From Treponema sp. UBA3813 (GTDB taxonomy: Bacteria > Spirochaetota > Spirochaetia > Treponematales > Treponemataceae): a stretch of DNA of 54,973 nucleotides. Position 1 is the first letter of the stretch; the number at the start of each line of letters is the position of its first letter. The DNA lies in contig DFEB01000013.1 in NCBI GenBank assembly GCA_002368605.1, positions 1 to 54,973 on the forward strand. Direction: 5' to 3'. Shown here one piece after another: positions 360 to 50,675 of the stretch. Below the pieces are notes generated by a model. The model was not told where the DNA came from. It was given only the letters and a program-made list of their open reading frames with translations, and did not search any database. The translations under genes and the position numbers were made by a program.

Positions 360-2915
360 CTAGTCTAACAAGTAATTGTAATCAGGAGCGTTTCCGAATT
401 CGTCTTCTTTCAGGAAGTCATAAATTGATGAGCCTGTATTATTTGTGAAAATATTGTTTCCTTCTAAGTCAAACGAAAGTGGTGTAGAATCTCTTATGAT
501 AAGGTCACTGGCAAATCCTGCACGATACAAATCTTGCTCAAGTCGATATAGTCCTAAAAGTCGTCCTGTTGAGTTTCCTGAGTGTACCGTACATAATTCT
601 GTGGGCTGTGTGCCTTCAAGGAATGTAAGCGTGATTTTTCCTTCATTGCAGTCATCTGTTGGAAGATTGCCGCTTGCAGAACAAACTGTGACATCAACAG
701 TCCCGCTTGCTGGTGCTGTAAAATTCTTATAAGGCAGTCCGTCGTGGGCTTTTTGCATAAAACTTGCCATTGCATAGCCTGCAAGAGTTGAACCTGTCAG
801 TTTTAAGCCAAGTGATTGACCTGGTTTATCGAATCCGAACCAGAAAACAGATGTGTAATAAGGTGTAAAGCATGCGGCCCATGCATCTGCCCAGTTTTGT
901 GTTGTTCCGGTTTTTCCTGCTGCAGGAATTGTATATTTTCTGCCATTTTCGTTTCTGTATGTAAATTTCGAGCCGTTTCCTGTAGGACCTGCAAGCGTAC
1001 CAGACTTTACTGTGTTTTCAAGAATCTTTGTCATTACATAGGCTGTTTGAGGTGTGATAACTTGTGTCGCCGCGCCTTTTGCAATTTGCTTTTGGCGGAC
1101 ATCTTTTTCCGGATTTAAGAAAACATTTCCATTTTTGTCTTCGACACTGCGAATAGCTATAGGAATAACTTCTTTTCCTCCATTTGCAAAAATTGCATAG
1201 GCATGGGCTACTTCAATTGGACGGACAGAACATACGCCGAGTCCTATTGGGTAGCCTGGTACAAAACCTCTGTTCGGGACTTCTTCTTCTGGAATTCCGA
1301 GTAATTCAATTGCCCTGTTGATAGCTGTATCAAATCCTATTCCATCAAGAATCTTTAGTGATGGAACATTCATTGAGTGAGCCAGTGCGTACCAAAGTTC
1401 TACATCACCTTTCCATTCACCACGGAAATTCTGTGGAATGTAAGGCTTTCCGTCTGCAGTGTGGAATACGATTGGAGTGTCAGAAATAATTGTGCTTGGA
1501 GTGTATTGCCTAGAGTCTATGGCAGCGCTGTAGTAAAGTGGCTTAAAAGAGGAGCCGGGCTGGAGTTTTGCCTGAACTGCTCGTATGAACTGATTTTCGC
1601 CGTCAAATTTGCTTCCTCCGACAAGAGAGGTTATGTAACCTGTGGAGTTCTCAAGGGCAATCATTGTTCCTTCAATGACATTCTTTCCTACATTTGATTT
1701 AGCCACAGCATTCGCCCTATTTGCAACGCTTATTTTTAGGGAATCAATTCCGCACACAAGAGACATGACATCAACGATAGGGTTGATTGTCTTTGTATAA
1801 GTTGAAAGCGCTATGACCTCGTTTCTCTGCTGAGAGAATTTTAACTCTCCAAGATTGAAAGTTAGTGTCAGAAGCTCTGTAAGCGGTGTGTATATTTTGA
1901 GCGCTTCGTTTTCTCGTTCGCTGTTTCCTCGCTGATAAGTGCGGTTTGCATAGGCAATGTAATGCTCCATCGTATTCTGTGCCGCAATCTGATTTTTAAG
2001 ATTGAGCGTAGTGTTGACGGTAAAGCCTGATGAATAAATATCATCTGTTCCGTATACCATACCTGCGAGTTCTCGACGGACATATTCTGAGAACCAGGGA
2101 GCATTGTCGTCTCGTGTGACGATTGCCGTGTTTCCAGTGCGGGTATAGTCAAAATTAGCCCAATAATTGTCAAAAGATGTATTTGCTTGTTCTTCTGTGA
2201 TTAAGCCTGACTCGACCATAGTGGCAAGAACATACTGTTGTCTGTCCATTGCTCGATCAGGATGCTCGAATGGGTTGTAGTGGGCTGGATTTGAGAGCTG
2301 AACGACAAGGAGAGCGGCTTCTGCTGGCGTTATTTCACTGGCATCATGCCCGAAATAGAGTTTGCTTGCCGCATTGACACCGTATGTTCCCATTCCAAAG
2401 TAAATTTTGTTTAGATAAAGCTCAAGAATTTCATTTTTTGAAAATCGTCTCTCCATCTGAATTGCCCACCACAATTCCTTGAGCTTTCGTTTGTATGATT
2501 TGTCTGTTCGGTCACAGTAAAGAGTACCCGCAATCTGTTGGGTCAGAGTTGAGCCACCTCCTAAAGAAAGATGTAGGGCCTGACCTACAACGGCACGGAA
2601 AAGTGCTTTTATTGAGAAGCCGTGGTGAGTGTAGAAAATTCGGTCTTCGCGAGAAACGAGGGCATCAATCATGTGCTGGGGAAGATGGTTGATGCTGATA
2701 ATTTCTCGTTTTTCTTCGCTGGCAAATTCAGTGATAAGCTCACCGTTTATGTCGAGGATTCGTGTTGGGAGTGCCGTGTCAAACTCTGTGAAGTTTTCGT
2801 TGTCTATTATGAATTTTGTATTTGAGAGGGCCAATCCAAGAGATGCGCCAAAAACGGCCGCAAAGAAAAAAAGCCCTGAAATCATAAGAATTGTAAATTT
2901 GCTCGTTTTTTTCAT
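360..2915 (-). CDS. Penicillin-binding protein 1A (transglycosylase/transpeptidase)
   Basis: Bifunctional class A penicillin-binding protein of 851 residues that polymerises and cross-links peptidoglycan at the outer face of the inner membrane. An N-terminal membrane anchor (residues about 8-30) is followed by the GT51 glycosyltransferase domain with its signature motifs: SREDRIFY with the catalytic Glu near residue 90, GGGSTLTQQ, and NEILELYLNKIYFG. The transpeptidase domain has the SxxK motif in GSSFKPLYY (about residue 455), an SMN motif and KTGTT (about residue 667). All catalytic residues are present and the length is normal. The start is preceded by a -10-like TATTCT only 7 nt upstream and no ribosome binding site, suggesting a leaderless message. 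It is the last minus-strand gene before the 5S RNA. The family (mrcA/ponA) is certain; the exact paralogue name is not. Confidence 0.95.
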   Translation of the reverse strand: MKKTSKFTILMISGLFFFAAVFGASLGLALSNTKFIIDNENFTEFDTALPTRILDINGELITEFASEEKREIISINHLPQHMIDALVSREDRIFYTHHGFSIKALFRAVVGQALHLSLGGGSTLTQQIAGTLYCDRTDKSYKRKLKELWWAIQMERRFSKNEILELYLNKIYFGMGTYGVNAASKLYFGHDASEITPAEAALLVVQLSNPAHYNPFEHPDRAMDRQQYVLATMVESGLITEEQANTSFDNYWANFDYTRTGNTAIVTRDDNAPWFSEYVRRELAGMVYGTDDIYSSGFTVNTTLNLKNQIAAQNTMEHYIAYANRTYQRGNSERENEALKIYTPLTELLTLTFNLGELKFSQQRNEVIALSTYTKTINPIVDVMSLVCGIDSLKISVANRANAVAKSNVGKNVIEGTMIALENSTGYITSLVGGSKFDGENQFIRAVQAKLQPGSSFKPLYYSAAIDSRQYTPSTIISDTPIVFHTADGKPYIPQNFRGEWKGDVELWYALAHSMNVPSLKILDGIGFDTAINRAIELLGIPEEEVPNRGFVPGYPIGLGVCSVRPIEVAHAYAIFANGGKEVIPIAIRSVEDKNGNVFLNPEKDVRQKQIAKGAATQVITPQTAYVMTKILENTVKSGTLAGPTGNGSKFTYRNENGRKYTIPAAGKTGTTQNWADAWAACFTPYYTSVFWFGFDKPGQSLGLKLTGSTLAGYAMASFMQKAHDGLPYKNFTAPASGTVDVTVCSASGNLPTDDCNEGKITLTFLEGTQPTELCTVHSGNSTGRLLGLYRLEQDLYRAGFASDLIIRDSTPLSFDLEGNNIFTNNTGSSIYDFLKEDEFGNAPDYNYLLD

Positions 2916-2922
2916 TTATTAT

Positions 2923-2950
2923 AGAATACAATTTCTCAAAACTTCTGTAA
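2923..2950 (-). promoter_or_regulatory. Candidate promoter of PBP1A gene
   Basis: On the minus strand TTACAG (2950-2945) and TATTCT (2928-2923) are separated by 16 nt. The -10 ends 7 nt before the ATG at 2915, so transcription would start at or next to the start codon. A second hexamer TATAAT at 2923-2918 is too close to the ATG to be the main -10. Confidence 0.4.
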
Positions 2951-2974
2951 AGGCACTGTGTTAATGGGTTTTTA

Positions 2975-3068
2975 AAAGAAAAGGGCTGTCTTGCGACAGC
3001 CCAGTTGCCCATCAGGCAAGTCGGGCGCCAATGGGTGGGAGGGGATAATTGCGCGCCCGACTTTTATA
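2975..3068 (-). terminator. Hairpin cluster, terminator downstream of the PEGA-like gene
   Basis: Three hairpins in a row. GGGCTGTC/GACAGCCC (2983-2990 with 2995-3002, 4-nt loop) is followed on the minus strand by TTTTCTTTT, a good intrinsic terminator for the gene at 3130-4158. A small TTGCC/GGCAA hairpin (3005-3019) and a 10-bp stem AGTCGGGCGC/GCGCCCGACT (3019-3028 with 3053-3062) lie beside it, the latter followed by T residues on the plus strand. Confidence 0.7.
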
Positions 3069-3129
3069 TTATCGCTATAAAAGGCAGAAATCTTTAGAGA
3101 TTTGAATTAATTTTATTGAAAATGATGCC

Positions 3130-4158
3130 CTAATTTTCTTCTGTGATGGTTGCGTCAATATTTAGGTTTACAGAATAGGTTCGTCCGTTCATTGCTGAGA
3201 CGGTTTTTATTATTTCGTAGTCGCCAAGAATGAAATTTACTGTATGTTCTCCCTGTGTGACGACAATTGCTTCGTTTGTAACTTTGACAAGTTCTCCGTC
3301 AAGATAGACTTGTGTATTTCGTGGGCAGAGAAGTTTTATAAGTGGTTCAATTCCCCTTAGTTTGACGGAAACGCCCGTATTTTTAGCTTGTTCAATGCGG
3401 AAAGTACGCAACTCATTTCGATATGAATCGCTGACAATTGAAAGATGATGCTCCCCGGTCGTGAGGATTTTTTGAGAGTAATCGTTTGCAGGCACATCAT
3501 CAATGAAAACAGAATATTTTTTTTCTTCGTTTGATGGGGGAGTTATTGAAAGAGTGAGAGAACCTTTGTTTTTTAGAACGGGTTTTGCTGTTATTTCTAG
3601 AATAGAATTTTCAAGAGATTCTGGAACACCCTTCATGACCATCATGAAACGAAGAAATATGCCTGTCTGCTTTGAATTTTGAGCCAGACTTGTTTTGAAA
3701 TTGTCTGACAAGGGGAGCTTTACTGAATAAGGATTGTCTTTGATTGAAAAGTCAGAGGAAATCGGGACATAAATGGTTAGGGTAAAATTGCCCGGAATTG
3801 TATTGAGGTAAACTCTTTCCCCATGATAATTTTTCTTTTTCTCGCTGGGAATTGGGTCGAGTTTTTCGTAGAGCATGTATGCGACTGAATCACGCCATGT
3901 AACGATATCTTCAGGAACTTTTAGGGTGAGCTCAATTCCGCTGACATAGGTTAAGTCTGAGGGAAGCGTAATCCACAGGGCATCGTTTATGCCTGATGAA
4001 ACCGTAATTTTTTCGTCAATGTTTGTGAAAGTGATTGGAACTAGTTTTCTGATACGGAAATTTTCTGCGGATAGAGAAAGCGTGGCTCCCAAAAGAATGG
4101 CGCCCAAAGAGAGAAAAAATTTGCAATTCTTTAGCGGCGAATTTAAAAATCTCTGCAT
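3130..4158 (-). CDS. Exported protein with PEGA-like C-terminal repeats
   Basis: Uncharacterised 342-residue protein. The first about 30 residues form a Sec signal peptide: basic start, hydrophobic core SLGAILLGATLSLS, then an AEN cleavage region. The central part is beta-rich with no recognised domain. The last about 120 residues contain two PEGA-like units (YSVFIDDVPA...TGEHHLSIV and TQVYLDGELVKV...TQGEHTVNFILGDYEIIKTV), a surface-associated beta fold often found in exported proteins. No catalytic motif is seen. It probably acts in the periplasm or envelope. A TATACT hexamer at 4180-4175 suggests its own promoter with a leader of about ten bases. It is separated from the peptidase gene by about 100 bases. 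Function is unknown; the PEGA reading rests on pattern only. Confidence 0.7.
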   Translation of the reverse strand: MQRFLNSPLKNCKFFLSLGAILLGATLSLSAENFRIRKLVPITFTNIDEKITVSSGINDALWITLPSDLTYVSGIELTLKVPEDIVTWRDSVAYMLYEKLDPIPSEKKKNYHGERVYLNTIPGNFTLTIYVPISSDFSIKDNPYSVKLPLSDNFKTSLAQNSKQTGIFLRFMMVMKGVPESLENSILEITAKPVLKNKGSLTLSITPPSNEEKKYSVFIDDVPANDYSQKILTTGEHHLSIVSDSYRNELRTFRIEQAKNTGVSVKLRGIEPLIKLLCPRNTQVYLDGELVKVTNEAIVVTQGEHTVNFILGDYEIIKTVSAMNGRTYSVNLNIDATITEEN

Positions 4159-4264
4159 ATACCGTCTGTCTCTTAGTATAGTACAGGCTTTGTTTTTTTT
4201 CTATGGATAAAGCCCCTAATTGCTGAAAATAAAATGAAAAAAGCCTTTGAAAAACAGAAAAAAC

Positions 4265-5413
4265 CTAAAATTTCCGAATTTGTTTTGCCGGGTCGGTGGG
4301 AGTTCCGTTTTCCCTGACTTCAAAATGCAGGTGGGGGCCGGTGGAGGCTCCTGTGGTTCCCACTAAGCCGATTACCTCGCCGCTTGTGACGGTCTGACCT
4401 GGACTGACGAGTATTTTTGAGAGATGGGCGTAGCGGCTTACGGTGTTTCCATTGTGCTTTATGTCGATGTATTTTCCGTAGAGAGGGTGATTTTGCTCAG
4501 CGGTGATGACGATTCCGCTTTTACAGGCGTAGACTTCACTTCCGATGGGGGCCGCAAGGTCGATTCCGGCGTGGAATTTCCATGTGCCTGAAACAGGACT
4601 GGTTCGGTAGCCGAATTCAGATGTGATGATTTTTTTGCTCAAGGGAAGCTGCATTCCCTTGTCGTGGAAGAAGGCGATTTGCGTGGGGGAGAATGTGCGG
4701 TCCGGGAGAAAGTAAAATTCCTGACCGTCGATGTCATAGACTGTGGTTTTCTCTGTGATGAAGGGGGCGTATTCTTTCTGGAGTAGGATTTCAAGGGCGG
4801 ACTCGGCTTTTTTGGGGATGAAAAGCCCTTGCGGGACCGGGAGAATCAGTTCCATGCCTGCGTGAAGGTCTTCCGGCGATGAAATGCGGTTTATTGTGGC
4901 GAGGCTGCCCTGACCTGTCTGGAAGCGGGCGTAGAGTCCGTGGAAAGTGTCCAGATATTTTTCCTTGTCGCTTACGACTTTGTAAGTGTAAAAAAGTGAA
5001 GCCGGCTTGTCGCGGATTTTTTCGGGCGGAAAATTTGAGGGCAGATTTTTGATTTTTCGGTAGCTTTCCATGTCTTTCTGGTATTGCTGCCAGATTCCGT
5101 TTTCGCGGGAGATTATTTCCCTCTCCTCATCGCTTTTGGCTGTGCGGGGAGAGACGAATTTTGGGTTTCCGATACGGGGAAGGGATTCCCTGGTGATAAA
5201 AAGAGCTTCCGCTGAAGGGGGCTCTTCCCCGGTGAAGGGAAGCTCTGATGAATCTTGGGAAAAAAGCGGAAAAACTGTGAGAAAAATGAGGGGAAAGAGA
5301 AAATACCGCCCCGCCGTGTAGCCCCGAAGCTGCTGCAGGCAGTGAGCGTGAGCGAAGGGCGGAAGGGCGGCAGAGAGAAAAATTTTGCGCCAGAAATGGA
5401 AAAAAAACTTCAT
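4265..5413 (-). CDS. LysM and M23 family metallopeptidase
   Basis: Predicted peptidoglycan-directed endopeptidase or hydrolase-activator, 382 residues. The C-terminal domain is a complete M23 (LytM/lysostaphin) peptidase: FHAGIDLAAP, then RYAHLS and HLHFEVRENG supply the zinc-binding His/Asp and catalytic His. A degenerate LysM segment (ATINRISSPEDLHAGMELILP) lies before it. I place the start at ATG 5413-5411 because it overlaps the stop of the upstream membrane-protein gene in the classic ATGA arrangement; longer forms would run through that gene. The signal peptide is odd: MKFFFHF is separated from the hydrophobic core RYFLFPLIFLTVFPLFSQ by about 26 residues encoded by a dispersed repeat (5317-5396) that is also found near ruvC. 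The protein is probably exported; whether secretion still works with the insertion is not known. Confidence 0.85.
   Translation of the reverse strand: MKFFFHFWRKIFLSAALPPFAHAHCLQQLRGYTAGRYFLFPLIFLTVFPLFSQDSSELPFTGEEPPSAEALFITRESLPRIGNPKFVSPRTAKSDEEREIISRENGIWQQYQKDMESYRKIKNLPSNFPPEKIRDKPASLFYTYKVVSDKEKYLDTFHGLYARFQTGQGSLATINRISSPEDLHAGMELILPVPQGLFIPKKAESALEILLQKEYAPFITEKTTVYDIDGQEFYFLPDRTFSPTQIAFFHDKGMQLPLSKKIITSEFGYRTSPVSGTWKFHAGIDLAAPIGSEVYACKSGIVITAEQNHPLYGKYIDIKHNGNTVSRYAHLSKILVSPGQTVTSGEVIGLVGTTGASTGPHLHFEVRENGTPTDPAKQIRKF
5317..5396. repeat. Dispersed intergenic-type repeat, copy A, inside coding sequence
   Basis: This 80-base stretch shares TGTAGCCCCG, a GCAGTG segment, GAGCGTGAGCGAAGGGCG and TTGCGCCAGAA in the same order with 41570-41653. 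Here it lies within the signal-peptide region of the M23 peptidase gene and is read in frame on the minus strand (residues such as ALPPFAHAHCLQQLRGY). Confidence 0.8.
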
Positions 5414-5766: not shown

Positions 5767-5787
5767 GCTCTTATTGTAAAACAAAAA

Positions 5788-5819
5788 AATGAAAAAAAAA
5801 AGACTGCCTTGTGGCAGCC
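5788..5819 (-). terminator. Intrinsic terminator after the ferredoxin gene
   Basis: On the minus strand GGCTGCC ACAA GGCAGTC (5819-5802, one G-U pair) is followed directly by a run of ten or more T residues. It ends the ferredoxin transcript; the membrane protein/peptidase pair downstream would depend on read-through or its own promoter. Confidence 0.8.
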
Positions 5820-5837
5820 TTGCTATAAAGAATGAAC

Positions 5838-6011: not shown

Positions 6012-6082
6012 AATTTGTACCTCTTAAAAATGGTTTATGATGTCATTGTAATATCGGAAAATGTGAAAAACAAGGGTTTGAA

Positions 6083-6139: not shown

Positions 6140-6168
6140 TTTAAAAAAAAATCCACCCGTGCTAAAAT
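6140..6168 (+). promoter_or_regulatory. Candidate deoC promoter (leaderless layout)
   Basis: TAAAAT at 6163-6168 is a good -10 and ends 7 nt before the deoC ATG at 6176. There is no Shine-Dalgarno sequence in the gap. The -35 region (TTTAAA at 6140-6145, 17-nt spacer) is weak. Confidence 0.45.
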
Positions 6169-21224: not shown

Positions 21225-21230
21225 TATAAT
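21225..21230 (+). promoter_or_regulatory. -10 element of dut (leaderless layout)
   Basis: A perfect TATAAT ends 8 nt before the dut ATG at 21239, and no Shine-Dalgarno sequence is present. The -35 region falls in the T tract of the pnp terminator and is only AT-rich. Confidence 0.55.
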
Positions 21231-24213: not shown

Positions 24214-25419
<1,206 letters not shown>

Positions 25420-34741: not shown

Positions 34742-34770
34742 ATTATAGAAGAAAACAGTGAAGTTTACAA
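34742..34770 (-). promoter_or_regulatory. hrpA promoter (leaderless layout)
   Basis: On the minus strand TTGTAA (34770-34765) and TATAAT (34747-34742) are 17 bases apart; only six bases separate the -10 from the ATG at 34735. The interval contains TCTCC rather than a Shine-Dalgarno sequence. Confidence 0.65.
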
Positions 34771-35935: not shown

Positions 35936-35941
35936 ATTATA
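35936..35941 (-). promoter_or_regulatory. -10 element of the CapA-like gene (leaderless layout)
   Basis: TATAAT (35941-35936) ends six bases before the ATG at 35929, with no ribosome binding site between. The -35 region is poor (TGGTGA at 35964-35959). Confidence 0.5.
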
Positions 35942-36010: not shown

Positions 36011-37092
36011 GTAAAATCTTCCCATTGCAGGCCCGCTCCATTCTCTACATCGCGTGTGAGTTTTGCCCCGATCACTTTGTCTAAAAATCTGGGATGCAGG
36101 CCTACGGAAAGGACTTTTTCGGTTCTCAAGACACCGATATCTTCTATATTAATGACTTCTCCGGCTTTCATTGAGCGCATGAGGTGAAGGCTTCGGTTCG
36201 TTCGGCCGTAATTGGCTTCTTCGGCAGGGGCAAGCTTTTTAACGCCGTCGCCCATGATTTTTTCCACCCGCTCTCCGTACTCAGACTTCAGCTGATTTAA
36301 AATGTAATCTCTTGCATTGCCGTACTGACGGAAAGCCGCCTCGCATTGCCGTACACAGTGGCTCATGAGAGAGAATTGCTCGCCGGTTAAGGCCACCGGG
36401 TCGTCCAAGCCGTCTGTTTCCTTTGAAAGGGTGATGTGCTTTTCTATCATTGTGCCGCCAAGAGCCGCCGCTATCGAGGGAACTAAAACCGGGTCAAGGG
36501 AATGGTCGCTTACTCCGCAGGGAATGCCGAAAACCCGTGAAAGATTTGGAATCAGCTTTAGGTTATATTCTTCTTCCGGGGCAGGGTAGCTTGTGATGCA
36601 GTGCAGGAGAGTGACATTCTCCCGGCCTAAAATTGACAGGGCTTCTTCAATGTCAGAAAGATGGGAGACACCAGAGGAAATGACCAGGGGAATATCTTGA
36701 TTCTTCCGTAATTCGGCAAGTTTTTTTAGCAGTGGAATGTGATTCAGCTCTGGAGAGGCGATTTTTACCGCGTCCGGCTTAATGGAAAGCAATTCTTCAA
36801 GGGAACGGATGCCAAAGGGAGAGCACATGAAGAGCGCGCCCTTTTCGTGGGTATATTTCAAACATTCTTCAAAAAAAGAAGGCTTCACTTCCAGTTCCTT
36901 GAAACGCTGGTACAGAGGAATCTTTCCGGTGGGCAACTTCACGAATCCTGTGTCGGGATGCAAAATCTCGTCAGCATAAACCCACTGGAATTTAACATAA
37001 TCCGCTCCGCTTTCTACGGCGCAGTCAATGAGACGCTTGGCTTTTTCCAAATTTCCGCCGTGGGATGTTCCGATTTCTGCGATAATTTTCAT
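35998..37092 (-). CDS. neuB: N-acetylneuraminate synthase family protein (NeuB/SpsE)
   Basis: Condenses phosphoenolpyruvate with an N-acetylated hexosamine to make a nine-carbon sialic-acid-type sugar. The 364-residue protein has the NeuB barrel (MKIIAEIGTSHGGNLEKAKRLIDCAVESGADYVKFQ, VKIASPELNHIPLLKKLA, GVSDHSLDP, GGTMIEKHITL) and the C-terminal antifreeze-like SAF domain (RSLHLMRSMKAGEVINIEDIGVLR...). Both are complete. Relatives make pseudaminic or legionaminic acid, used for flagellin or surface glycans, so the exact sugar is open. No other sialic-acid genes are adjacent. It has GAGGAAATC before the ATG and a short leader from the shared divergent promoter. Confidence 0.88.
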   Translation of the reverse strand: MKIIAEIGTSHGGNLEKAKRLIDCAVESGADYVKFQWVYADEILHPDTGFVKLPTGKIPLYQRFKELEVKPSFFEECLKYTHEKGALFMCSPFGIRSLEELLSIKPDAVKIASPELNHIPLLKKLAELRKNQDIPLVISSGVSHLSDIEEALSILGRENVTLLHCITSYPAPEEEYNLKLIPNLSRVFGIPCGVSDHSLDPVLVPSIAAALGGTMIEKHITLSKETDGLDDPVALTGEQFSLMSHCVRQCEAAFRQYGNARDYILNQLKSEYGERVEKIMGDGVKKLAPAEEANYGRTNRSLHLMRSMKAGEVINIEDIGVLRTEKVLSVGLHPRFLDKVIGAKLTRDVENGAGLQWEDFTIHN

Positions 37093-37111: not shown

Positions 37112-37142
37112 ATTGTATCACAAAGATTTTGTGTGATACAAT
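37112..37142. promoter_or_regulatory. Symmetric overlapping divergent promoter (neuB / TIGR03546)
   Basis: ATTGTATCACAAA and its near mirror TTTGTGTGATACAAT form a palindrome. On the plus strand TTGTAT (37113-37118) and TACAAT (37137-37142) have an 18-nt spacer; on the minus strand TTGTAT (37141-37136) and TACAAT (37117-37112) also have 18. Each -10 doubles as the other promoter's -35. Plus-strand transcription would begin at the ATG at 37149. Confidence 0.65.
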
Positions 37143-37662: not shown

Positions 37663-39927
37663 ATGAAAACTGAAAATGAAAAATTAAAAACAGAAACAAA
37701 AAAAGAAAAAAAAGCAAAGAAACCTGAGAAAATGCTCGGCATAAAAAAACTTCCAGGGCTTTTTAAAAAATCATATACACAAAAAAAATTCGATAAACTT
37801 CTTTCAAAAGTATATGTTCCTGAGGATAAGGCTCTTATTCAGTCTATGTTCTCAGAAAAAATCACGAAGGGAAAAACTGAAAAACTTCGGGTTCCCCGTG
37901 ACTATCAGTTTCCGAAAAAGCAGCGTAAATCTCTCAAGCTCCTTGCAAAGAATATCAAAAAGAATAAAGGCAGAATTAAGCTGCTCCCTTTTATAGCGGT
38001 GGTCGTATTTATCGCCGTTATCGGAATCACCGTCACGATTTTTAAGAATCCAGTAGCAAAAATGGCAATTCGTTCTACCATGCAGGGGATTTTCGGAGCA
38101 AAATGCGATATTGAAAGCGTGAATGTCGAAATCTTTGGCGCTCGCCTTACTGTCCGAAATCTTGCCCAAGCAAATGCCGATTCACCAATGAAAAATATCT
38201 TCCAGTTTGACAAACTCGACCTGGATTTCAATCTTACTCAGCTTTTACGGGCACGCTTCCATGTACAAAATATCGAAATAACAGGAATTGCCCTCAATAC
38301 TGACCGAAAGACAAGCGGTGCGCTTCCGGTCAAACCAAAGTCAGCAAAAGAAAAAGAAGAAAAAAACGATTCGACTGGATTTTATGATGCTCTCAAGGCC
38401 CGTTCGGCTAATTCTCTTGATGGAGCAAAAGAAAGCATCACGGAACTGCTTGCAAAATATGACCCGCAGGCTCTTATTGCGAATGTAAAAGAAAACATAA
38501 AAACAAAGGCTGTTGCTGAAGAAGTTGAGGTTGAACTCAAAAAAATGCTGGAAGTCTGGCAATCAAAACCTGCTGAGCTCCAAGGGGATGTCGAAACTTT
38601 TAAGGCTAATTCTGAAAAACTCGCGAAACTTGATGCAAAAAGTCTGAAGACTCCTGAAGAAATAAAAGATGCGATTACCAGTATTCAGTCCGCGCTTGAC
38701 AGTGGCAAAAAAGTAAGGGACTCTGTTGATTCGACCATAAAATCTTTTGATTCAGATAAAAACAAAGTCAGTGAATTGAAGGCAAAGGTTGAGGAGGCTG
38801 TTGCAAGTGACAAAGCGCTTATTCAGTCTCAAATTCCAGATTTGTCAGTCTCAAATGCTAAAAATGTGCTTTCTGGAATTTTTGATGATTTTGCATATTC
38901 AATGTTGGGAAAGTATTATCCCTATCTGAAACAGGCAATCTCTTATGCTTCGTCAATGAAGAGCAACGGTTCTGATTCGGATCAGGCAAAAGAATCTGTT
39001 AAAAAAGAAAAGAAAAAGGCTCGGAAGGAGTCAAAACGATATGCTGGCCGAAATGTATATTGGCGTGCGGATCGAGTACCAAAACTTCTTATTGAAAATC
39101 TTCATGGAAGCGGAACTGGAATTGACTTGCTTGTCACGAATATTTCAAGCGATATGGATAAGGTTGGAAAACCGCTCATTGCAAAGGGCGTGTATACGGC
39201 TTCTAGCAGGACTCACAATGCAGGCCTTACGATTGATGCCCGCTCTGCAAGTAAGGAGCCGCTTATAGCCGGAAACTACTCGGCAGATAAATTCCCGGTC
39301 AACATGTCTTTCGGAGAGCCGGTTGAAAAACCGGGAGTCCCGTCATTTGCTGGAACGACTTCTTTGACTGCGAAATTAACGGCAGATGCAGATTACAGCT
39401 TTACGGTGGGAGCGGCTCTTTCCATGAGTCCTGTGACTATTTCAAATAATCCGATTACTCCTGAATTTGCGAATAGAATTTATTCGGGTGCACTTTCTGC
39501 CGTAAAAGCGATGAATGTGAGCGCAAATGCAGGCTTTAGCGAGCAGAAAGGTCTTGATTTGGATATATCAACTGATGCGGATAAGGTGATTATGGAGGCG
39601 CTCAAAAAACTTGCTGCCCAAGAACTAGATTCTGTCAAGCAGGAAGCTATCGCAAAAGTCACAGAGGAATTAAATTCATACACGGCGGGATTAACTGGCA
39701 AATTTGGTGATTTTAATGATATAGCGTCAAAACTTAAGGATTCTCAAAGTCTTACAGATGAACTAAATAAACAGCTTGAGGCTAAAAAGGCTGAATTGCA
39801 GAAGCAGCTGACAGGGGCTGCAACGAATGCGGCCAAAGACGCGGCTTCAAAGGCTCTTGGTAATTCTGAGGCAGGAAAGGCGGCTTCAAATGTGGCCGGA
39901 AGCTTGCTTAAAGGCTTCGGCAGATAA
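37663..39927 (+). CDS. TIGR03545-type large envelope protein (AsmA-like)
   Basis: A 754-residue protein with a strongly basic N-terminus (many Lys up to residue 110), one membrane helix (KLLPFIAVVVFIAVIGITVTIF, about residues 106-127) and a long periplasmic part. After the helix, IRSTMQGIFGAKCDIESVNVEIFGARLTVRNLAQANADSPMKNIFQFDKLDLDFNLTQLLRARFHVQNIEITG resembles the N-terminal unit of AsmA/TamB-type lipid-transport proteins. A coiled-coil-rich centre and an Ala/Lys-rich C-terminal segment follow. It corresponds to the family described as TIGR03545, always near TIGR03546. Lipid transfer between membranes is a guess from the AsmA-like part. Confidence 0.8.
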   Translation: MKTENEKLKTETKKEKKAKKPEKMLGIKKLPGLFKKSYTQKKFDKLLSKVYVPEDKALIQSMFSEKITKGKTEKLRVPRDYQFPKKQRKSLKLLAKNIKKNKGRIKLLPFIAVVVFIAVIGITVTIFKNPVAKMAIRSTMQGIFGAKCDIESVNVEIFGARLTVRNLAQANADSPMKNIFQFDKLDLDFNLTQLLRARFHVQNIEITGIALNTDRKTSGALPVKPKSAKEKEEKNDSTGFYDALKARSANSLDGAKESITELLAKYDPQALIANVKENIKTKAVAEEVEVELKKMLEVWQSKPAELQGDVETFKANSEKLAKLDAKSLKTPEEIKDAITSIQSALDSGKKVRDSVDSTIKSFDSDKNKVSELKAKVEEAVASDKALIQSQIPDLSVSNAKNVLSGIFDDFAYSMLGKYYPYLKQAISYASSMKSNGSDSDQAKESVKKEKKKARKESKRYAGRNVYWRADRVPKLLIENLHGSGTGIDLLVTNISSDMDKVGKPLIAKGVYTASSRTHNAGLTIDARSASKEPLIAGNYSADKFPVNMSFGEPVEKPGVPSFAGTTSLTAKLTADADYSFTVGAALSMSPVTISNNPITPEFANRIYSGALSAVKAMNVSANAGFSEQKGLDLDISTDADKVIMEALKKLAAQELDSVKQEAIAKVTEELNSYTAGLTGKFGDFNDIASKLKDSQSLTDELNKQLEAKKAELQKQLTGAATNAAKDAASKALGNSEAGKAASNVAGSLLKGFGR

Positions 39928-41704: not shown

Positions 41705-42079
41705 GGGGGTGCACCGGTTTCGACGATTGTGATCAAGGCACTTACGGCATGTGGGAGTCAAGGTTCCCAAAACTGAGAAAACAATAACTGCAATTTTCGA
41801 AAGAAAAGAAGAAGAAGTCGAAGAGGCTTCTTTCGCAGAAGCTCTCGCTGCATAGCTTGAGCCGGAACTCGTAGGGTGCTGTTCCTAACTTTACGACTTC
41901 CGTCACAAACAGGGACTTGCTGCGCGTAATTTTTGGGGTGCGCGCGGGACTTTTACTCAGAATACGGAGGAGACGCTTGTTATGCTGCTACCTGCTCCCG
42001 ACAACTACCTCGCATAACTAAACATGTAGATGTATTTGGCTTCCACTTTCGGACGGGGGTTCAATTCCCCCCATCTCCA
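41705..42079 (+). ncRNA. ssrA: Transfer-messenger RNA (tmRNA)
   Basis: RNA that frees stalled ribosomes and tags the incomplete protein for degradation. The 5' end GGGGGTGCACCGGTTTCGAC (41705-41724) is the classic tmRNA start; GGGGGTG pairs with CATCTCC (42072-42078) as the acceptor stem, with discriminator A at 42079. The T arm GGACGGGGGTTCAATTCCCCCC is present. CCA is not encoded. The tag reading frame ends in ...FAEALAA then TAG (41853-41855). If translation resumes at the GCA at 41790, right after the usual ATAACT context, the tag is 21 residues, rich in Glu (KEEEVEEA), longer than most. Pseudoknot regions fill 41860-42040. Confidence 0.95.
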
Positions 42080-42168
42080 AAAATCCCGTAGAATTTTTCC
42101 CCTTGAAAAAGAGTTGGTCTTGCTCAGGATTTGAGCGAAGACATTCGTGTCGTAGAGGTAAAGTAGGC

Positions 42169-45737: not shown

Positions 45738-45741
45738 AATC

Positions 45742-46128: not shown

Positions 46129-46224
46129 AAGACAGCTCCTTAGAATAAGTTTTAGGTGAATTATAAGGAGATTTTTCTGAGCGGCATATGACTTTTTGGG
46201 GACAATTTTCTGTTTATACATAAA

Positions 46225-46268
46225 TATCCCCGCCCGAAGATTCCTCCTCAGGTGGGGATAACATTTTT
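46225..46268 (+). terminator. Hairpin with T tract, plus orientation
   Basis: TATCCCCGCC (46225-46234) pairs with GGTGGGGATA (46251-46260, one G-U), then ACATTTTT. No plus-strand gene precedes it, so it may belong to a lost gene. Confidence 0.5.
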
Positions 46269-46281
46269 ACATCAATTCAAT

Positions 46282-46500
46282 CTACACCCGCGAAAAGGAA
46301 GCCTTTTCGATTTCGCTCTTTAGCTCGCTGCTGGGCGTGAACAGAATGCGCTTGGCAGTTATGCTTGAGGCATCCACATCTTCCGGCTTTTCAAAGCCCT
46401 TTGACGAGAACGAAAGCTTTACCCGGCCAAAGTTCCAAAAACGTCCGATGGTTTGGGGAATTCTCGCCGTGTTTTTTGCGAGCGGACTGAGGTTTTCCCC
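46282..46500 (-). pseudogene. Possible C-terminal gene remnant
   Basis: A minus-strand frame of about 70 codons (LSPLAKNTARIPQTIGRF ... SSELKSEIEKASFSRV) with protein-like composition runs to a stop at 46282. The frame has no start codon of its own with a ribosome binding site and begins at a CCCCAC/GTGGGG hairpin. I do not recognise it. It may be the tail of a lost gene, or chance. Confidence 0.3.
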
Positions 46501-46558
46501 ACAAAAGAGTGGGGTTGTGGTATAATGTTCTATTATTGTAGGTATGGAGAAAAAAGCT

Positions 46559-46948
46559 ATGACTAAACCCAAACCCCTGCAAATCCGCAACAACACAATA
46601 GATTTCCTCACATTAACTCGGCAATCCGGCGGAGTCTGGGAAAATTTAGCTTGTGCAAATTTTGCACAAGTTGCCGATAACGGGAAAACATATCAATACA
46701 AATTCTACGGCCTAAAAGCCGTCATTGCGGTTTGATGTAAAGTCAACTCTCAGGCGGCTGTTGAGTTCTGGCAGTGGGCGACCCGTGTGTTGGATAAGCC
46801 GCTGCTTGAAAACGGTCTGATTTTTGACGAAGCGTTTTTTGCCCACCTATTTTCAGAGATTCATGAAATCCGCTCTATAACCCATGCAAACTTCATCCAT
46901 TTCATGCTACACTATCCCCATCCCCCAATACAAGGAGCCCTCACATGA
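46559..46948 (+). pseudogene. RhuM-family protein, decayed
   Basis: The start MTKPKPLQIRNNTIDFLTLTRQSGG is the typical beginning of RhuM-type (virulence RhuM/KilA-N-associated) proteins. The sequence then jumps to VADNGKTYQYKFYGLKAVIAV, which in intact relatives lies about 60-80 residues later, so an internal deletion has occurred. An in-frame TGA (46733-46735) follows, and the same frame continues with KVNSQAAVEFWQWATRVLD and DEAFFAHLFSEIHEIRS, again pieces of the family, to a stop at 46946-46948. TATAAT lies at 46521-46526 and GGAG precedes ATG 46559. The promoter remains but the product is broken. Confidence 0.75.
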
Positions 46949-47041
46949 CTAAAGTCTACTGTTACGCCCCCTTCTGGTGACCGATGATGCGGTTTGCACT
47001 GGATTCAAAGAAGGGGAATGGAGGGCGGCGCTGAAAGTGTA
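46945..47041 (+). pseudogene. Fragment of a second small decayed gene
   Basis: AAGGAG and an ATG at 46945 overlap the RhuM remnant's last stop (ATGA). The frame gives MTKVYCYAPFW then stops; one frame over, LVTDDAVCTGFKEGEWRAALKV reads to a stop at about 47041. This looks like the start and end of one gene joined by a deletion. Family not recognised. Confidence 0.4.
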
Positions 47042-47089
47042 GGGGTGGGGTGCTATGTCACCTTATCTATATAAGTTTTTCCCAAAATG

Positions 47090-47109
47090 CGCTATACTTA
47101 GCGTATAAT
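47090..47109 (+). promoter_or_regulatory. Promoter region of the DUF5655 gene
   Basis: TATAAT at 47104-47109 lies 17 bases before the ATG. CGCTA (47090-47094) and TAGCG (47099-47103) form a small palindrome just ahead of it. The -35 is weak. Confidence 0.45.
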
Positions 47110-47126
47110 TTAATTCAGAGGTTGCT

Positions 47127-48023
47127 ATGGCTGACATCAAATTGTTCAACATAAAAGGTTCTGTTCAGGAATTGCAGAGCGGGACAGTCAATTTGGAAAA
47201 AGAACTTCAGACTGTCATCGAACGCAATATGAAAACCTTTTTTGAAATAACTTTTTTGGCAAGTGAATATTCCACGACAAACGGCGGAAGGATGGACAGC
47301 CTCGGAATTGATGAAAATTTCTGTCCGGTCATTTTTGAATACAAACGAGATGTAAAAGAAAATGTCATAAATCAAGGTCTCTTTTACTTGGATTGGCTTC
47401 TTGACCACAAGGACAGTTTTAAATTGCTTGTTCTTGAAAAAGTCGGCTCAAAAGTTGCTGAACAAATTGACTGGTCAATGCCCCGCGTTATCTGCATAGC
47501 TAATGATTTTACAAAATACGATGAGTCAGCCATAAAGCAGATGAACCGAAATATCACTTTGATTCGCTACAGAAAGTTTGAAGGCGATTTGTTGATGTTT
47601 GAGCAGGTGAATGAAAATGTCATACGCATCTCTTCTGAGAATGCAGATGCAAACAAAAAAAGAAAATCGAATGACAAGACTTTTGAACAACAGTATGAAA
47701 GTGTGCCTGATAAAATCAAGAACTTATATGATGATGTTCGGAACTATATTCTTGCGCTTGGCGATGATATTACCGAAACAAAGTTAAAGTTATACACGGC
47801 TTTTAAGAAAATGAAGAATATCATTTGCGCTGAACTTTCTCCCTCGAAAATCACTCTGTATTTAAAACTTCCAGTTGATTCTATTTCTTATGAGACAGGT
47901 TTTTCCCGTGACGCTTCCAATGTCGGCCATTGGGGAACTGGCGATGTTGAACTGACGATAAAAGAGAGCGCTGATTTTCAAAAAGCAAAGTCCCTTATTG
48001 AGCGGGCATATTCTGAAAACTAA
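47127..48023 (+). CDS. DUF5655-type protein with nuclease-like N-terminal domain
   Basis: Cytoplasmic protein of 298 residues. The N-terminal half carries a PD-(D/E)xK-like core, GGRMDSLGIDENFCPVIFEYKRD (Asp then Glu-x-Lys), resembling NucS/DUF91 nucleases. The C-terminal about 130 residues (VPDKIKNLYDDVRNYILALGDDITETKLKLYTAFKKMKNIICAELSPSKITLYLKLP ... FSRDASNVGHWGTGDVELTIKESADF) match the DUF5655 pattern. Such proteins are uncharacterised; a DNA-related role is inferred from the core only. GAGG precedes the ATG; a TATAAT at 47104-47109 and an inverted CGCTA/TAGCG pair beside it form the likely promoter with a possible operator. Confidence 0.75.
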   Translation: MADIKLFNIKGSVQELQSGTVNLEKELQTVIERNMKTFFEITFLASEYSTTNGGRMDSLGIDENFCPVIFEYKRDVKENVINQGLFYLDWLLDHKDSFKLLVLEKVGSKVAEQIDWSMPRVICIANDFTKYDESAIKQMNRNITLIRYRKFEGDLLMFEQVNENVIRISSENADANKKRKSNDKTFEQQYESVPDKIKNLYDDVRNYILALGDDITETKLKLYTAFKKMKNIICAELSPSKITLYLKLPVDSISYETGFSRDASNVGHWGTGDVELTIKESADFQKAKSLIERAYSEN

Positions 48024-48036
48024 GAGGCAATTCCCA

Positions 48037-48396
48037 ATGATCCAAATCTTCGGCACAAACAAAAATTTCGACTGCAAGGCGGCCCAGCGTTTTTTTAAGG
48101 AGCGGCGCGTTCCATTTCAGTTCATCGACCTTAAAGAAAAAGAGATGTCCTCTGGCGAGTTCGATTCCGTTCTTTCTGCCCTTGCAAAATCAGAGGGAAG
48201 CCGGGCGGCGGCAATAGAGGCTTTGACCGACACAAAATCAAAGGATTACTCAAGCATCGCCTATCTTGACGACAGCGAAAAAGAAGAAAAACTTTTTGAA
48301 AACCAGGCTAAACTCTTAAAACAGCCCGTCTGCCGAAACGGAAAAACCGAAGCCACTGTTGGCATGGCGCAGAAAGTCTGGGAAGGCTGGAAGTAA
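48037..48396 (+). CDS. ArsC/Spx/YffB family thioredoxin-fold protein
   Basis: Small protein of 119 residues from ATG 48037, preceded by GAGG. MIQIFGTNKNFDCKAAQRFFKERRVPFQFIDLKEK is the standard start of arsenate-reductase-like proteins, with the single active-site Cys in NFDCKAA; KLLKQPVCRNGKTEATVGMAQKVWEGW is the conserved C-terminal part with the cis-Pro and Arg. It is more like YffB/Spx-type members than true arsenate reductase, and no arsenic genes are near. Redox or glutathione-linked function is likely; the substrate is not known. Confidence 0.85.
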   Translation: MIQIFGTNKNFDCKAAQRFFKERRVPFQFIDLKEKEMSSGEFDSVLSALAKSEGSRAAAIEALTDTKSKDYSSIAYLDDSEKEEKLFENQAKLLKQPVCRNGKTEATVGMAQKVWEGWK

Positions 48397-48415
48397 AGGG
48401 CAGGAAGAATCATAG

Positions 48416-48892
48416 ATGCAAAAAATTGGAATGGAAAAAGAAAACATTGTCGGCATAGTTGCAAACAGTTTGCTTTTAGGAGGTTGCGTTTGCGCTTTGA
48501 TTGCGATGTGTCTTTTGCAGGCCGGAATAATTCCCATTATAATTTCTGTTTTTTTTATCCTGTTGTTCTTATTCGGTATCATAGTTGAAAGCCGGGAATC
48601 CATTCTTTATGACGAGTCTCATTTTGAAGTAAGAAGTTTTGCTGGAAAAGAAAAAATCGACTACGGGGATATCGTAAAAATTTCCCGCGTGTATATCCGG
48701 CTTACGGCAAGGGCTGGCGGGCATTGGCGTTATTATGTTTACATTAAAGCAGATGACGAAATTAAAAAAGTAATAGTTCCCTTTCCTCAGTTTATAGAAA
48801 ACGTTCACTTGCAGGATTTGTTTTCAAAAATCAAATTTGCAAATTCCCAAGTCCAATGGGCTCTGCCTGTAAACATTCAGAGTAATCGTTAA
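48416..48892 (+). CDS. Small membrane protein, PH-like domain
   Basis: Protein of 158 residues (start ATG 48416; ATG 48431 is also possible). Two membrane helices at the N-terminus (GIVANSLLLGGCVCALIAMCLL and GIIPIIISVFFILLFLFGIIV) are followed by a beta-rich cytoplasmic part (ESILYDESHFEVRSFAGKEKIDYGDIVKISRVYIRL...) that resembles bacterial PH-like domains. Function unknown. It lies 20 bases behind the ArsC-like gene and ends 7 bases from the stop of the convergent glycosylase gene. Confidence 0.65.
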   Translation: MQKIGMEKENIVGIVANSLLLGGCVCALIAMCLLQAGIIPIIISVFFILLFLFGIIVESRESILYDESHFEVRSFAGKEKIDYGDIVKISRVYIRLTARAGGHWRYYVYIKADDEIKKVIVPFPQFIENVHLQDLFSKIKFANSQVQWALPVNIQSNR

Positions 48893-48899
48893 AACTATC

Positions 48900-49472
48900 T
48901 TATAGAATATAAACCGAATATGCTTCAATCAGCTTTTCCAGTGACCATGCGGCATTTGCGGGGCTGGTGCTGGGAAGGCATTGGCTTGTTAGATTGAAGC
49001 GTTCTTCGTAAGTGTCGGCACAGTGCTTCTGCCAGAGGGCAAAGGCGGTCTTTCCCGTGCAGAAAACGCGGCGGATTTTGCTCTGCTCAAAAATCTTCGT
49101 AAAGTCATTGGGCGTTGCGCTTCTAATACTTGCGTCCGCTGCCCCCTCAATCTCGCAGGAGGCAAGCACATCCCAGAGGGCGATATGATGGCGAATTAGA
49201 AAATCCCGCCTTTCTTTAATCGCTGCGGCTAGGTCGGCTCTTTCCTGCATGGCCGCTTTTGCTGTGGAAAATCCCTTGTTCGTGTATGTCATTTTCTCGC
49301 CAAAGACTGCGGGTAGCACCCGCCAAAATCTGTTCTGGGCGTGCATGTAGAAAAATCCCGCATTCCGGCTGGCGGGGGAGGGCATGGTTCCAAGCAAAAG
49401 AATCCTGCTTTCACTGTTCCACACTGGCGGAATGGGGTGTGTGATTTTTTCGGCAAGAGAGGATGTGCTCAT
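48900..49472 (-). CDS. DNA-deoxyinosine glycosylase (UDG family 6)
   Basis: DNA repair enzyme that removes hypoxanthine (deaminated adenine) from DNA. The 190-residue protein shows SRILLLGTMPSPASRNAGFFYMHAQNRFWRVL (family signature with the catalytic-pocket residues) and the C-terminal QCLPSTSPANAAW motif of the uracil-DNA glycosylase superfamily. Length is normal. TATACT ends six bases before the ATG, with no ribosome binding site, so the message is probably leaderless. Confidence 0.88.
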   Translation of the reverse strand: MSTSSLAEKITHPIPPVWNSESRILLLGTMPSPASRNAGFFYMHAQNRFWRVLPAVFGEKMTYTNKGFSTAKAAMQERADLAAAIKERRDFLIRHHIALWDVLASCEIEGAADASIRSATPNDFTKIFEQSKIRRVFCTGKTAFALWQKHCADTYEERFNLTSQCLPSTSPANAAWSLEKLIEAYSVYIL

Positions 49473-49478
49473 GGGAAA

Positions 49479-49484
49479 AGTATA
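49479..49484 (-). promoter_or_regulatory. -10 element of the glycosylase gene (leaderless layout)
   Basis: TATACT (49484-49479) ends six bases before ATG 49472. The -35 area (TTTCTT) is weak. Confidence 0.5.
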
Positions 49485-49649
49485 GCAGAAAAATCAGCGA
49501 AAAGAAAACGATGCTTTGTATGGGGATTTTGTGGGTTTTGTGGTGATTTGTTCACCCAGCGATTTTCCAAGCAGATTGGCGAGCGATTCCTGGCTTATAC
49601 GAAAGAATTCCGAAAAGATGGCGTCATTTTCTGTCTGCCGGTTTATATG

Positions 49650-49680
49650 ATTCCCTTTGTGTGAGGGAATTTTTGTTTTC
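49650..49680 (+). terminator. Plus-strand terminator with no intact gene before it
   Basis: ATTCCCT (49650-49656) and AGGGAAT (49664-49670) form a stem followed by TTTTTGTTTT. The 210-base gap 49485-49698 holds no intact gene, only a short plus-strand frame (FTQRFSKQIGERFLAYTKEF...) that stops inside the hairpin and could be a remnant. Confidence 0.65.
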
Positions 49681-49698
49681 CTTGTCAGCAAGTTGAAC

Positions 49699-50640
49699 TT
49701 ACCCCACATACTCCGCCACTATGCTCTGCACGGGAGTCAGGTAACTCGCGCCAAACATGTTCAGGTGGTTCAAGAGGTGGTAGAGATTGTAGAGGTCACG
49801 GCGGTCTTCATAGCCAGCCTGCATTTTGTGCGCTTCCTTGTAGGCAGCGTAGAATGAAGGGGGAAAACCGCCGAAAAGTTCCGTCATGGCAAGATCTGCC
49901 TCGGCGTGCCCTACATAGGCGGCGCTGTCAATCAAAATCGCTTTGCCCTCATTGTTGGCAAGAACATTGCCGTCCCACAAGTCACCGTGGAGAAGGCTGG
50001 GCTTTTCCGGCTCGGTTAGGAAGTTGTCCAAGTGGTCGAGCAGCTTTGTGTTCTGTCTGCGGTCGCTGTCAGAAAAATAGCGGTCGGCGGCCTTGAACTG
50101 AGGAAGTAGCCGCCTGTCGCGGAAAAAGGAAATCCAGTCTGCGGTGGGCGTGTTGTCTTGAGGCCTCGCTCCGATAAAATTATTCTGGAAGAAGCCGAAT
50201 TGCTTTGTGCCGGCATTTTCAGCGGATTCTAGGGGGAGAAATGATTTTGTGTCAGCCTTGTGCATGGTGGCAAGTTCACGGGCAAAGGTCTCAAAGTAGT
50301 CGGCTCTTTTTTTGCCGCTTTCGATAAAGTTCATAAGAAGGAAACTGTAGCCAACTTCCTCACCGTCGTCCGTTCCCGTGCAGAGAAGGTGCGGCGTGCC
50401 GATTGCTCCAGTCTCTGCGATTGCGGAAAGACAGGCGGCCTCGGCGGTAAAAAAGGCGGCGTTTTCCTTTGCGTTTGCCTTCATAAAAATGCGGTCGCCT
50501 GTGGTCAGCGTGAGGGCATAGGCCTTGTTGATGTCGCCGCCAGAAAGGCGGTCAGTGCGGGTTATTTTTACTGAAGTGCCAAAAAGCGAGACAAGGGCAT
50601 TTGCCAGTGAAGTGTAGTGGGGAATTGATGCGAGATTCAT
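49699..50640 (-). CDS. Fructosamine/ketosamine-3-kinase family protein
   Basis: Protein of 313 residues with an aminoglycoside-phosphotransferase-like kinase fold. Signatures of the fructosamine kinase family are present: RLSGGDINKAYALTLTTGDRIFMKANAKENAAFFTAEAACL (nucleotide binding with the Lys), LLHGDLWDGNVL (catalytic loop Asp) and AILIDSAAYVGHAEADLAM (metal-binding Asp). The family phosphorylates sugar-amine adducts on proteins so that they break down. A CTGACA/TAGCAT promoter ends six bases before the ATG. Confidence 0.9.
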   Translation of the reverse strand: MNLASIPHYTSLANALVSLFGTSVKITRTDRLSGGDINKAYALTLTTGDRIFMKANAKENAAFFTAEAACLSAIAETGAIGTPHLLCTGTDDGEEVGYSFLLMNFIESGKKRADYFETFARELATMHKADTKSFLPLESAENAGTKQFGFFQNNFIGARPQDNTPTADWISFFRDRRLLPQFKAADRYFSDSDRRQNTKLLDHLDNFLTEPEKPSLLHGDLWDGNVLANNEGKAILIDSAAYVGHAEADLAMTELFGGFPPSFYAAYKEAHKMQAGYEDRRDLYNLYHLLNHLNMFGASYLTPVQSIVAEYVG

Positions 50641-50646
50641 ATCTGT

Positions 50647-50675
50647 ATGCTAGCGTTTTTTACGGGATTTGTCAG
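50647..50675 (-). promoter_or_regulatory. Candidate promoter of the fructosamine kinase gene
   Basis: CTGACA (50675-50670) and TAGCAT (50652-50647) with a 17-nt spacer; the -10 ends six bases before ATG 50640, giving a leaderless layout. Confidence 0.5.

What the first reader, a model, noticed from the sequence alone, without database searches (positions are those of the whole stretch)
2913..50675. Recurrent leaderless promoter layout at first-in-transcript genes
At nine genes a -10-like hexamer ends 6-8 nt before the start codon with no Shine-Dalgarno sequence: PBP1A (TATTCT, 7 nt), deoC (TAAAAT, 7), dut (TATAAT, 8), tgt (TACAAT, 7), hrpA (TATAAT, 6), CapA-like (TATAAT, 6), TIGR03546 (TACAAT, 6), deoxyinosine glycosylase (TATACT, 6) and fructosamine kinase (TAGCAT, 6). 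Transcription would begin at or within a base or two of the start codon. In contrast most genes inside operons (udp, nusA, infB, rpsO, pnp, yebC, ABC genes) have strong ribosome binding sites. This points to two translation-start classes; leaderless initiation is known in actinobacteria and archaea but is not, to my knowledge, described as common in treponemes.
Basis: partly seen in the sequence, partly recalled or inferred. Interest (0 to 1): 0.78.

Follow-up and report, generated by a model that had tools for sequence, protein, structure and literature searches.

The report
Treponema genes transcribed from start codon
In this gut Treponema, roughly one in seven genes that lie first behind a promoter appears to start its messenger RNA at the start codon itself, with no ribosome-binding leader; this way of starting is known in other bacteria, and here it is kept in close relatives and swaps with the ordinary way when gene neighbourhoods change.

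Summary
All nine hexamers lie where stated and none has a Shine-Dalgarno (SD) sequence. The layout is a genome-wide class. In 660 kb (25%) of the genome a strict -10 hexamer 6-8 nt before the start codon occurs at 42 of 284 promoter-proximal genes (shuffle mean 5.7, maximum 12) and 5 of 149 operon-internal genes. Genome-wide, TATAAT-N6-ATG occurs 71 times against 7 for the reversed pattern. The class carries sigma70 marks that were not selected for, uses ATG only (52 of 52), and has an SD in 1 of 42, against 107 of 242 other promoter-proximal genes. Orthologues in relatives often keep the spacing. hrpA shows it in 10 of 11 close relatives but in 4 of 69 others, where 54 of 69 have an SD. Best reading: sigma70 promoters placed so that the mRNA begins at, or 1-2 nt from, the AUG. 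No 5' ends were mapped, so leaderlessness is inferred. The kind is known: Zheng 2011 lists leaderless genes in 6 of 18 Spirochaetes genomes, and Leptospira dRNA-seq found many. "First-in-transcript genes" overstates it: about 13-16% of them show the layout.

The parts
2923..2928 (-). -10 TATTCT, 7 nt before the PBP1A ATG (2915)
   Evidence: TAxxxT (at least 4 of 6) at gaps 6-8 in 13 of 20 orthologues, SD in 1 of 20
6163..6168 (+). -10 TAAAAT, 7 nt before the deoC ATG (6176)
   Evidence: strict -10 at 6-8 in 7 of 16 scorable orthologues of 20 fetched, SD in 5
21225..21230 (+). -10 TATAAT, 8 nt before the dut ATG (21239)
   Evidence: gaps 6, 6, 8 in 3 of 4 close relatives in which dut was found; across the phylum 0 of 20 by the promoter model, 2 of 20 by the strict hexamer
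24258..24263 (+). -10 TACAAT, 7 nt before the tgt ATG (24271)
   Evidence: homology starts near this ATG; strict -10 in 1 and SD in 17 of 20 genus orthologues
34742..34747 (-). -10 TATAAT, 6 nt before the hrpA ATG (34735)
   Evidence: gap 6 or 7 in 10 of 11 loci with HrpA at least 86% identical
34765..34770 (-). -35 TTGTAA of hrpA, 17-nt spacer
   Evidence: TTGTAA within 45 nt of the start in 9 of the same 11 loci
35936..35941 (-). -10 TATAAT, 6 nt before the CapA-like ATG (35929)
   Evidence: promoter model at least 10 at gap 6 in 5 and gap 8 in 1 of 8 close relatives with an alignable N-terminus
37137..37142 (+). -10 TACAAT, 6 nt before the TIGR03546 ATG (37149), within a palindrome
   Evidence: kept at gap 6 in 3 of 3 close relatives in which the gene was found; 0 of 30 loci in other genomes of the family
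49479..49484 (-). -10 TATACT, 6 nt before the deoxyinosine glycosylase ATG (49472)
   Evidence: strict -10 at 6-8 in 8 of 22 scored orthologue loci, SD in 5
50647..50652 (-). -10 TAGCAT, 6 nt before the fructosamine kinase ATG (50640)
   Evidence: promoter model at least 6, always at gap 6, in 12 of 20 scored loci (one is this genome's own second copy), SD in 1 of 20

Best explanation
These are ordinary sigma70-type promoters (-35 TTG.CA, 17-nt spacer, often an extended TGn, TATAAT) whose -10 element sits 6-8 nt before an ATG. RNA polymerase would therefore start the transcript at the A of ATG or 1-2 nt before it. The mRNA is leaderless or nearly so and is translated without an SD, presumably by direct loading of a 70S ribosome on the 5' AUG. 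Genes inside operons cannot use this route and keep an SD. A gene changes class when it gains or loses its own promoter, as hrpA does among relatives. Shown by sequence: the spacing peak, promoter marks, ATG-only starts, SD depletion, retention in close relatives, and different classes in orthologues. Inferred: the exact 5' end, the 70S loading, and the direction of the class changes.
For: Strict -10 at gaps 6-8 in 42 of 284 promoter-proximal genes, shuffle mean 5.7, and 5 of 149 internal genes. Whole genome: TATAAT-N6-ATG 71 against reversed control 7; TATAAT-N12-ATG 24 against 10. Marks not used in selection: T 23 nt before the -10 in 88%, G of the TG in 55%; TTG at a 16-18 nt spacer in 12 of 42 against 5% of 1301 coding hexamers. 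A promoter model trained on 118 sites from other genomes finds 50 of 284 own genes at gaps 6-8 against 1.5 per position elsewhere. Starts ATG in 52 of 52; SD 1 of 42 against 107 of 242. Starts look genuine: 30 of 42 have no in-frame upstream start; a downstream SD plus start occurs in 2 of 42 against 31 of 242; early-codon composition equals that of SD-led genes. hrpA: layout in 10 of 11 close loci, none with a long co-directional frame ending at its start; in the other 69 loci, layout in 4, SD in 54, such a frame in 55. Other orthologues. Controls: E. coli 2 of 86 (shuffle 0.9); Deinococcus deserti plasmid with the looser TANNNT rule 10 of 52 against 1.1.
Against: No 5' ends were mapped. SD depletion partly follows from the -10 occupying the SD position, although promoter-proximal genes with a strict -10 at 20-50 nt carry an SD in 39 of 71. 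The strict rule failed on the D. deserti positive control (0 of 52), so it misses degenerate sites. My gene caller gave the annotated E. coli start for 33 of 41 genes in the one stretch compared. TIGR03546 (0 of 30) and dut (0 of 20 by the promoter model) do not show the layout outside the close clade. A survey of six Spirochaetes gave a negative mean (-3.25) on the component its authors link to Pribnow-like signals (PMC5397173, passages).
Confidence: 0.9

Rival explanations
1. Chance AT-rich hexamers near starts: promoters are elsewhere and translation is non-SD (S1 or unstructured leaders).
For: The genome is AT-rich (43% GC in the sample) and only 38% of promoter-proximal genes have an SD by my rule.
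Against: The count at gaps 6-8 exceeds every one of 100 shuffles, and the selected sites carry a -35 and extended -10 that were not selected for.
Confidence: 0.03
2. Start codons are misassigned: the promoters are real but transcripts have short leaders and translation starts at a downstream codon.
For: The caller misses some starts (33 of 41 exact in E. coli).
Against: A downstream SD plus start is rarer than in control genes (2 of 42 against 31 of 242). Many orthologues align from residue 1 or within a few residues of it for PBP1A, hrpA and the kinase, and near the chosen ATG for tgt. Early-codon composition matches SD-led genes.
Confidence: 0.05
3. Very short leaders (about 2-5 nt) rather than truly leaderless mRNAs, because the polymerase may start nearer the -10.
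For: Gaps of 7-8, and of 9 in some PBP1A and tgt orthologues, leave room for 1-3 nt.
Against: The commonest gap is 6, within the usual -10 to +1 distance (recalled), and the class is ATG-only.
Confidence: 0.2

Closest known systems
TA-led (leaderless) genes of Zheng et al. 2011 (PMC3160421; passages)
   Same: TANNNT about 12 bp before the start, above dinucleotide shuffles, tied to operon-proximal genes while distal genes are SD-led; substitution between the two signals among orthologues (measured there in Actinobacteria).
   Different: They report 1.8-6.9% of genes in 6 of 18 Spirochaetes genomes; here 52 of 502 genes by a strict rule (8.6% after subtracting shuffles). The rules differ, so this is not a strict comparison. 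The words Treponema, Leptospira and Borrelia do not occur in the main text held.
Leptospira interrogans leaderless transcripts (PMC5243855; passages)
   Same: A spirochaete with many transcripts starting within 10 nt of the start codon, mapped by dRNA-seq.
   Different: That paper reports no promoter motif apart from sigma54; here a clear sigma70 consensus accompanies the sites. No 5' ends are mapped here.
Actinobacterial and Deinococcus leaderless mRNAs (Zheng 2011 table; otherwise recalled)
   Same: -10 element close before the start in a genome that also has SD-led genes; the D. deserti plasmid shows the excess at gaps 6-8 with TANNNT.
   Different: Higher fractions there (means of 19.2% and 39.4% of genes in that table).

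Membership tests
Leaderless (TA-led) gene class | Pribnow-like hexamer about 12 bp before the start, above shuffled sequence | tested here: met
   42 of 284 against shuffle mean 5.7, maximum 12; 71 against 7 genome-wide
Leaderless (TA-led) gene class | no Shine-Dalgarno sequence | tested here: met
   SD in 1 of 42 against 107 of 242
Leaderless (TA-led) gene class | promoter-proximal rather than operon-internal | tested here: met
   42 of 284 against 5 of 149, Fisher p 1.4e-4; classes by gene spacing only
Leaderless (TA-led) gene class | AUG start codon (recalled requirement) | tested here: met
   52 of 52 ATG; other promoter-proximal genes 222 ATG, 13 TTG, 7 GTG; not significant on its own, since ATG dominates
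Leaderless (TA-led) gene class | mapped 5' end at the start codon | not testable with these tools
   no RNA data held
sigma70 promoter | -35 element at 17 +/- 1 nt and/or extended -10 | tested here: met

The most novel reading that the evidence does not exclude
Leaderless initiation is a standing second initiation class in the Treponema lineage, stronger in this genus than in most other spirochaetes sampled and weak in a reduced 1.14-Mb relative. Genes pass in and out of it as operons break and form, so initiation class follows promoter position rather than gene function. hrpA, with the leaderless layout in the T. ruminis group and SD-led behind another gene in most of the other loci, is a natural experiment.
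Probability: 0.6. Interest if true: 0.5.

Novelty: new member of a known kind. Interest (0 to 1): 0.42.

Why it matters
Gene finders and expression studies in these treponemes that assume an SD leader would misplace starts or promoters for up to about a tenth of genes. Because promoter and start are one unit here, each such gene has a predictable transcription start, which yields a sigma70 consensus for a genus where two searches listed no genome-wide start map. Differences among close relatives make gain and loss of leaderless initiation, and its link to operon breakage, directly testable.

Tried and rejected
Orthologue tables for CapA-like, dut and TIGR03546, and for the kinase and glycosylase, were wrong: genome-search loci are not reoriented. 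One search replaces them. CapA-like orthologues outside the close clade could not be scored because N-termini diverge. The glycosylase table is noisy for a like reason. Strict -10 scoring is blind in GC-rich genomes (D. deserti 0 of 52; 10 of 52 with TANNNT). The definition of a first gene changed between calls (gap >40, >60, >50); the final numbers use >50 nt or a divergent neighbour, and internal means <=25 nt. In one search two genes of 504, and three, were dropped because the upstream stretch ran off a contig end. Searches for mapped Treponema transcription starts listed nothing that I could use; only the listings were seen. Early-codon composition and folding energy differed little between leaderless-layout and SD-led genes and were not tested, so no downstream-box claim is made.
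Full report
OBSERVATION. All nine hexamer/spacing pairs are in the sequence as described, and none of the nine starts has an SD (tgt). The window is a whole contig (C34, 54,973 bases) of an 83-contig, 2.60-Mb, 88.5% complete genome. Its nearest relatives by HrpA (92-99% identical) include rumen/omasum Treponema MAGs and Treponema ruminis RU1.

IS IT MORE THAN CHANCE? I sampled 660 kb (window plus 40 stretches) with a simple codon-based gene caller whose starts are chosen without looking upstream. Against E. coli annotation it agreed exactly for 33 of 41 genes in the one stretch compared. It called 504 genes: 284 promoter-proximal and 149 operon-internal by spacing. A strict -10 (TAxxxT, at least 5 of 6 to TATAAT) is counted 18, 16 and 8 times at gaps 6, 7 and 8 before promoter-proximal starts, and 1-5 times at each other gap from 0 to 29. 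As genes this is 42 of 284; 100 dinucleotide shuffles gave mean 5.7 and maximum 12. Internal genes: 5 of 149. Over all genes it is 52 of 502 against 9.1, a net 8.6%; over promoter-proximal genes a net 12.8%. Independent of gene calling, the whole genome holds 71 TATAAT-N6-ATG against 7 for the reversed pattern; TATAAT-N12-ATG gives 24 against 10. An earlier, less complete calling on the 80 HrpA loci gave hits at gaps 6-8 of 18 in 67 first genes of the T. ruminis group and 66 in 419 of the rest, and 0 in 22 and 6 in 240 internal genes.

ARE THEY PROMOTERS? Aligning the 42 promoter-proximal sites on the hexamer shows signals that were not selected for: T in 88% at 23 nt upstream of the hexamer (the first base of a -35 at 17-nt spacing), and T then G (60%, 55%) at the extended -10 position. 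TTG at spacers 16-18 occurs in 12 of 42, against 5% of 1301 strict hexamers inside coding sequence and 7% of shuffles. A model trained on 118 sites from other genomes (consensus .TTG.CA..........T.T..G.TATAAT) and applied to the own genome finds 50 of 284 promoter-proximal genes at gaps 6-8, about 1.5 per position elsewhere, and 3 hits at 6-8 among 149 internal genes.

ARE THE STARTS RIGHT? All 52 are ATG. SD occurs in 1 of 42 against 107 of 242 other promoter-proximal genes, and in 39 of 71 promoter-proximal genes whose strict -10 lies 20-50 nt away. No in-frame upstream start exists in 30 of 42; a downstream SD plus start within 90 nt exists in 2 of 42 against 31 of 242. Early codons are as A-rich as in SD-led genes (0.44 both; genes with neither signal 0.34). 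For tgt, homology starts at residues 11-14 in 30 of 37 listed matches, around the ATG at residue 13.

CONSERVATION AND CLASS CHANGE. hrpA: of 80 loci, the 11 with HrpA at least 86% identical have the strict -10 at gap 6 or 7 in 10, TTGTAA upstream in 9, an SD in 1, and in none does a co-directional open frame of 300 nt or more end within -28 to +40 of the start. The other 69 have the layout in 4 (one at gap 6, three at gap 8), an SD in 54 and such a frame in 55. PBP1A: 13 of 20 orthologues with TAxxxT (at least 4 of 6) at 6-8, SD in 1 of 20. Kinase: the promoter model passes in 12 of 20 scored loci, always at gap 6, SD in 1 of 20; a TCGACA -35 recurs. deoC: 7 of 16 scorable of 20 fetched, SD in 5. 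Glycosylase: 8 of 22, SD in 5. CapA-like: 6 of 8 alignable close relatives at gaps 6-8 with diverged flanks. tgt: 1 strict and 2 relaxed of 20, SD in 17; L023 and L024 share gap 7, L027 and L037 have gap 9. Against: TIGR03546 0 of 30 (SD in 22) and dut 0 of 20 by the promoter model, 2 of 20 by the strict hexamer (SD in 10), outside the close clade, although 3 of 3 and 3 of 4 close relatives in which they were found have the layout. So some genes hold the layout widely in the genus and others differ in class between relatives.

DISTRIBUTION. Samples of 100-140 kb from 16 relatives, strict rule: enriched in G083 (own genus, 9 of 47), G050 (8 of 40), G042 (6 of 52), G054 (6 of 45) and G027 (another family of the order, 7 of 48); with looser rules G042 and G054 fall within their shuffle range. 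G020 (69% GC) has 1 of 33, but 5 of 33 against 0.5 by TANNNT. Weak: G041 (5 of 58 against 2.1), G033 (2 of 36 against 0.6) and G044 (1 of 61 against 0.3; by TANNNT 5 of 44 against 1.3, maximum 4, so some degenerate signal remains). None of the seven genomes outside the order exceeds its shuffle maximum. E. coli: 2 of 86 against 0.9. Whole-genome counts of TATAAT-N6-ATG against the reversed control in 55 further genomes that I picked: own 71/7; same genus (6) 452/138; other genera of the family (23) 1316/622; other families of the order (10) 308/136; outside the order (16) 994/869. The own ratio is the highest among genomes with any control hit; G018 (10/0) and G020 (7/0) have none. In the family 18 of 29 others reach a ratio of 2, G041 among them (98/38), so its weak sample result may understate it. 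Three of the 16 outside genomes also reach 2 (G112 4/1, G119 15/3, G128 20/10). G044 has 1 against 4.

MECHANISM. The -10 to +1 distance of sigma70 promoters is usually 6-8 nt (recalled), so transcription should start at the A of ATG or within a base or two. Such mRNAs are taken to load 70S ribosomes on the 5' AUG (recalled; also stated in a passage of PMC5397173); that step is not tested here.

KNOWN OR NEW. Zheng et al. 2011 (PMC3160421; passages) describe this signal, its link to operon-proximal genes and its exchange with SD among orthologues, and list Spirochaetes at 6 of 18 genomes, mean 3.9% (1.8-6.9). The 2017 dRNA-seq study of Leptospira interrogans (PMC5243855; passages) mapped many transcripts starting within 10 nt of the start codon. 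PMC5397173 (passages) saw no such bias as a mean over six Spirochaetes. Searches 'leaderless' + 'Treponema' (14 papers) and 'leaderless mRNA' + 'Treponema' (1 paper) listed none whose title or shown abstract start is about leaderless mRNA in Treponema; apart from one reference-list passage I did not read those papers, and most subscription journals are not held. I file this as a new member of a known kind.

Noticed in passing
window 37113-37141: A perfect palindrome TTGTATCACA-N9-TGTGATACAA lies between the divergent genes at 37092 (-) and 37149 (+). Its arms hold the TACAAT of the leaderless-layout start and, on the other strand, a TACAAT upstream of an SD-led start. Of the 412 loci then held, only own ones and L023 have it exactly; L037 and L050 have degenerate arms. 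It could be an operator shared by two promoters.
   Followed up: partly
G000:C64:3-809 (L322): A second fructosamine-kinase-like gene, 64% identical, cut by the contig end; TAATAT at gap 6 before its start.
   Followed up: no
window 37686-37716 and G000:C37:30771-30801 (L002): A 31-base stretch 90% identical between two contigs, near the start of the gene at 37663.
   Followed up: no
G044 (1,139,633 bases): This reduced genome has almost no TATAAT-N6-ATG (1, control 4) and an SD fraction of only 0.19 among 16 internal genes sampled, so its initiation signals may differ from those of its relatives.
   Followed up: no
window about 42060-42100: Sequence resembling the 3' end of a tRNA gene just upstream of 42103 (read by eye; tRNA finder not run).
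   Followed up: no
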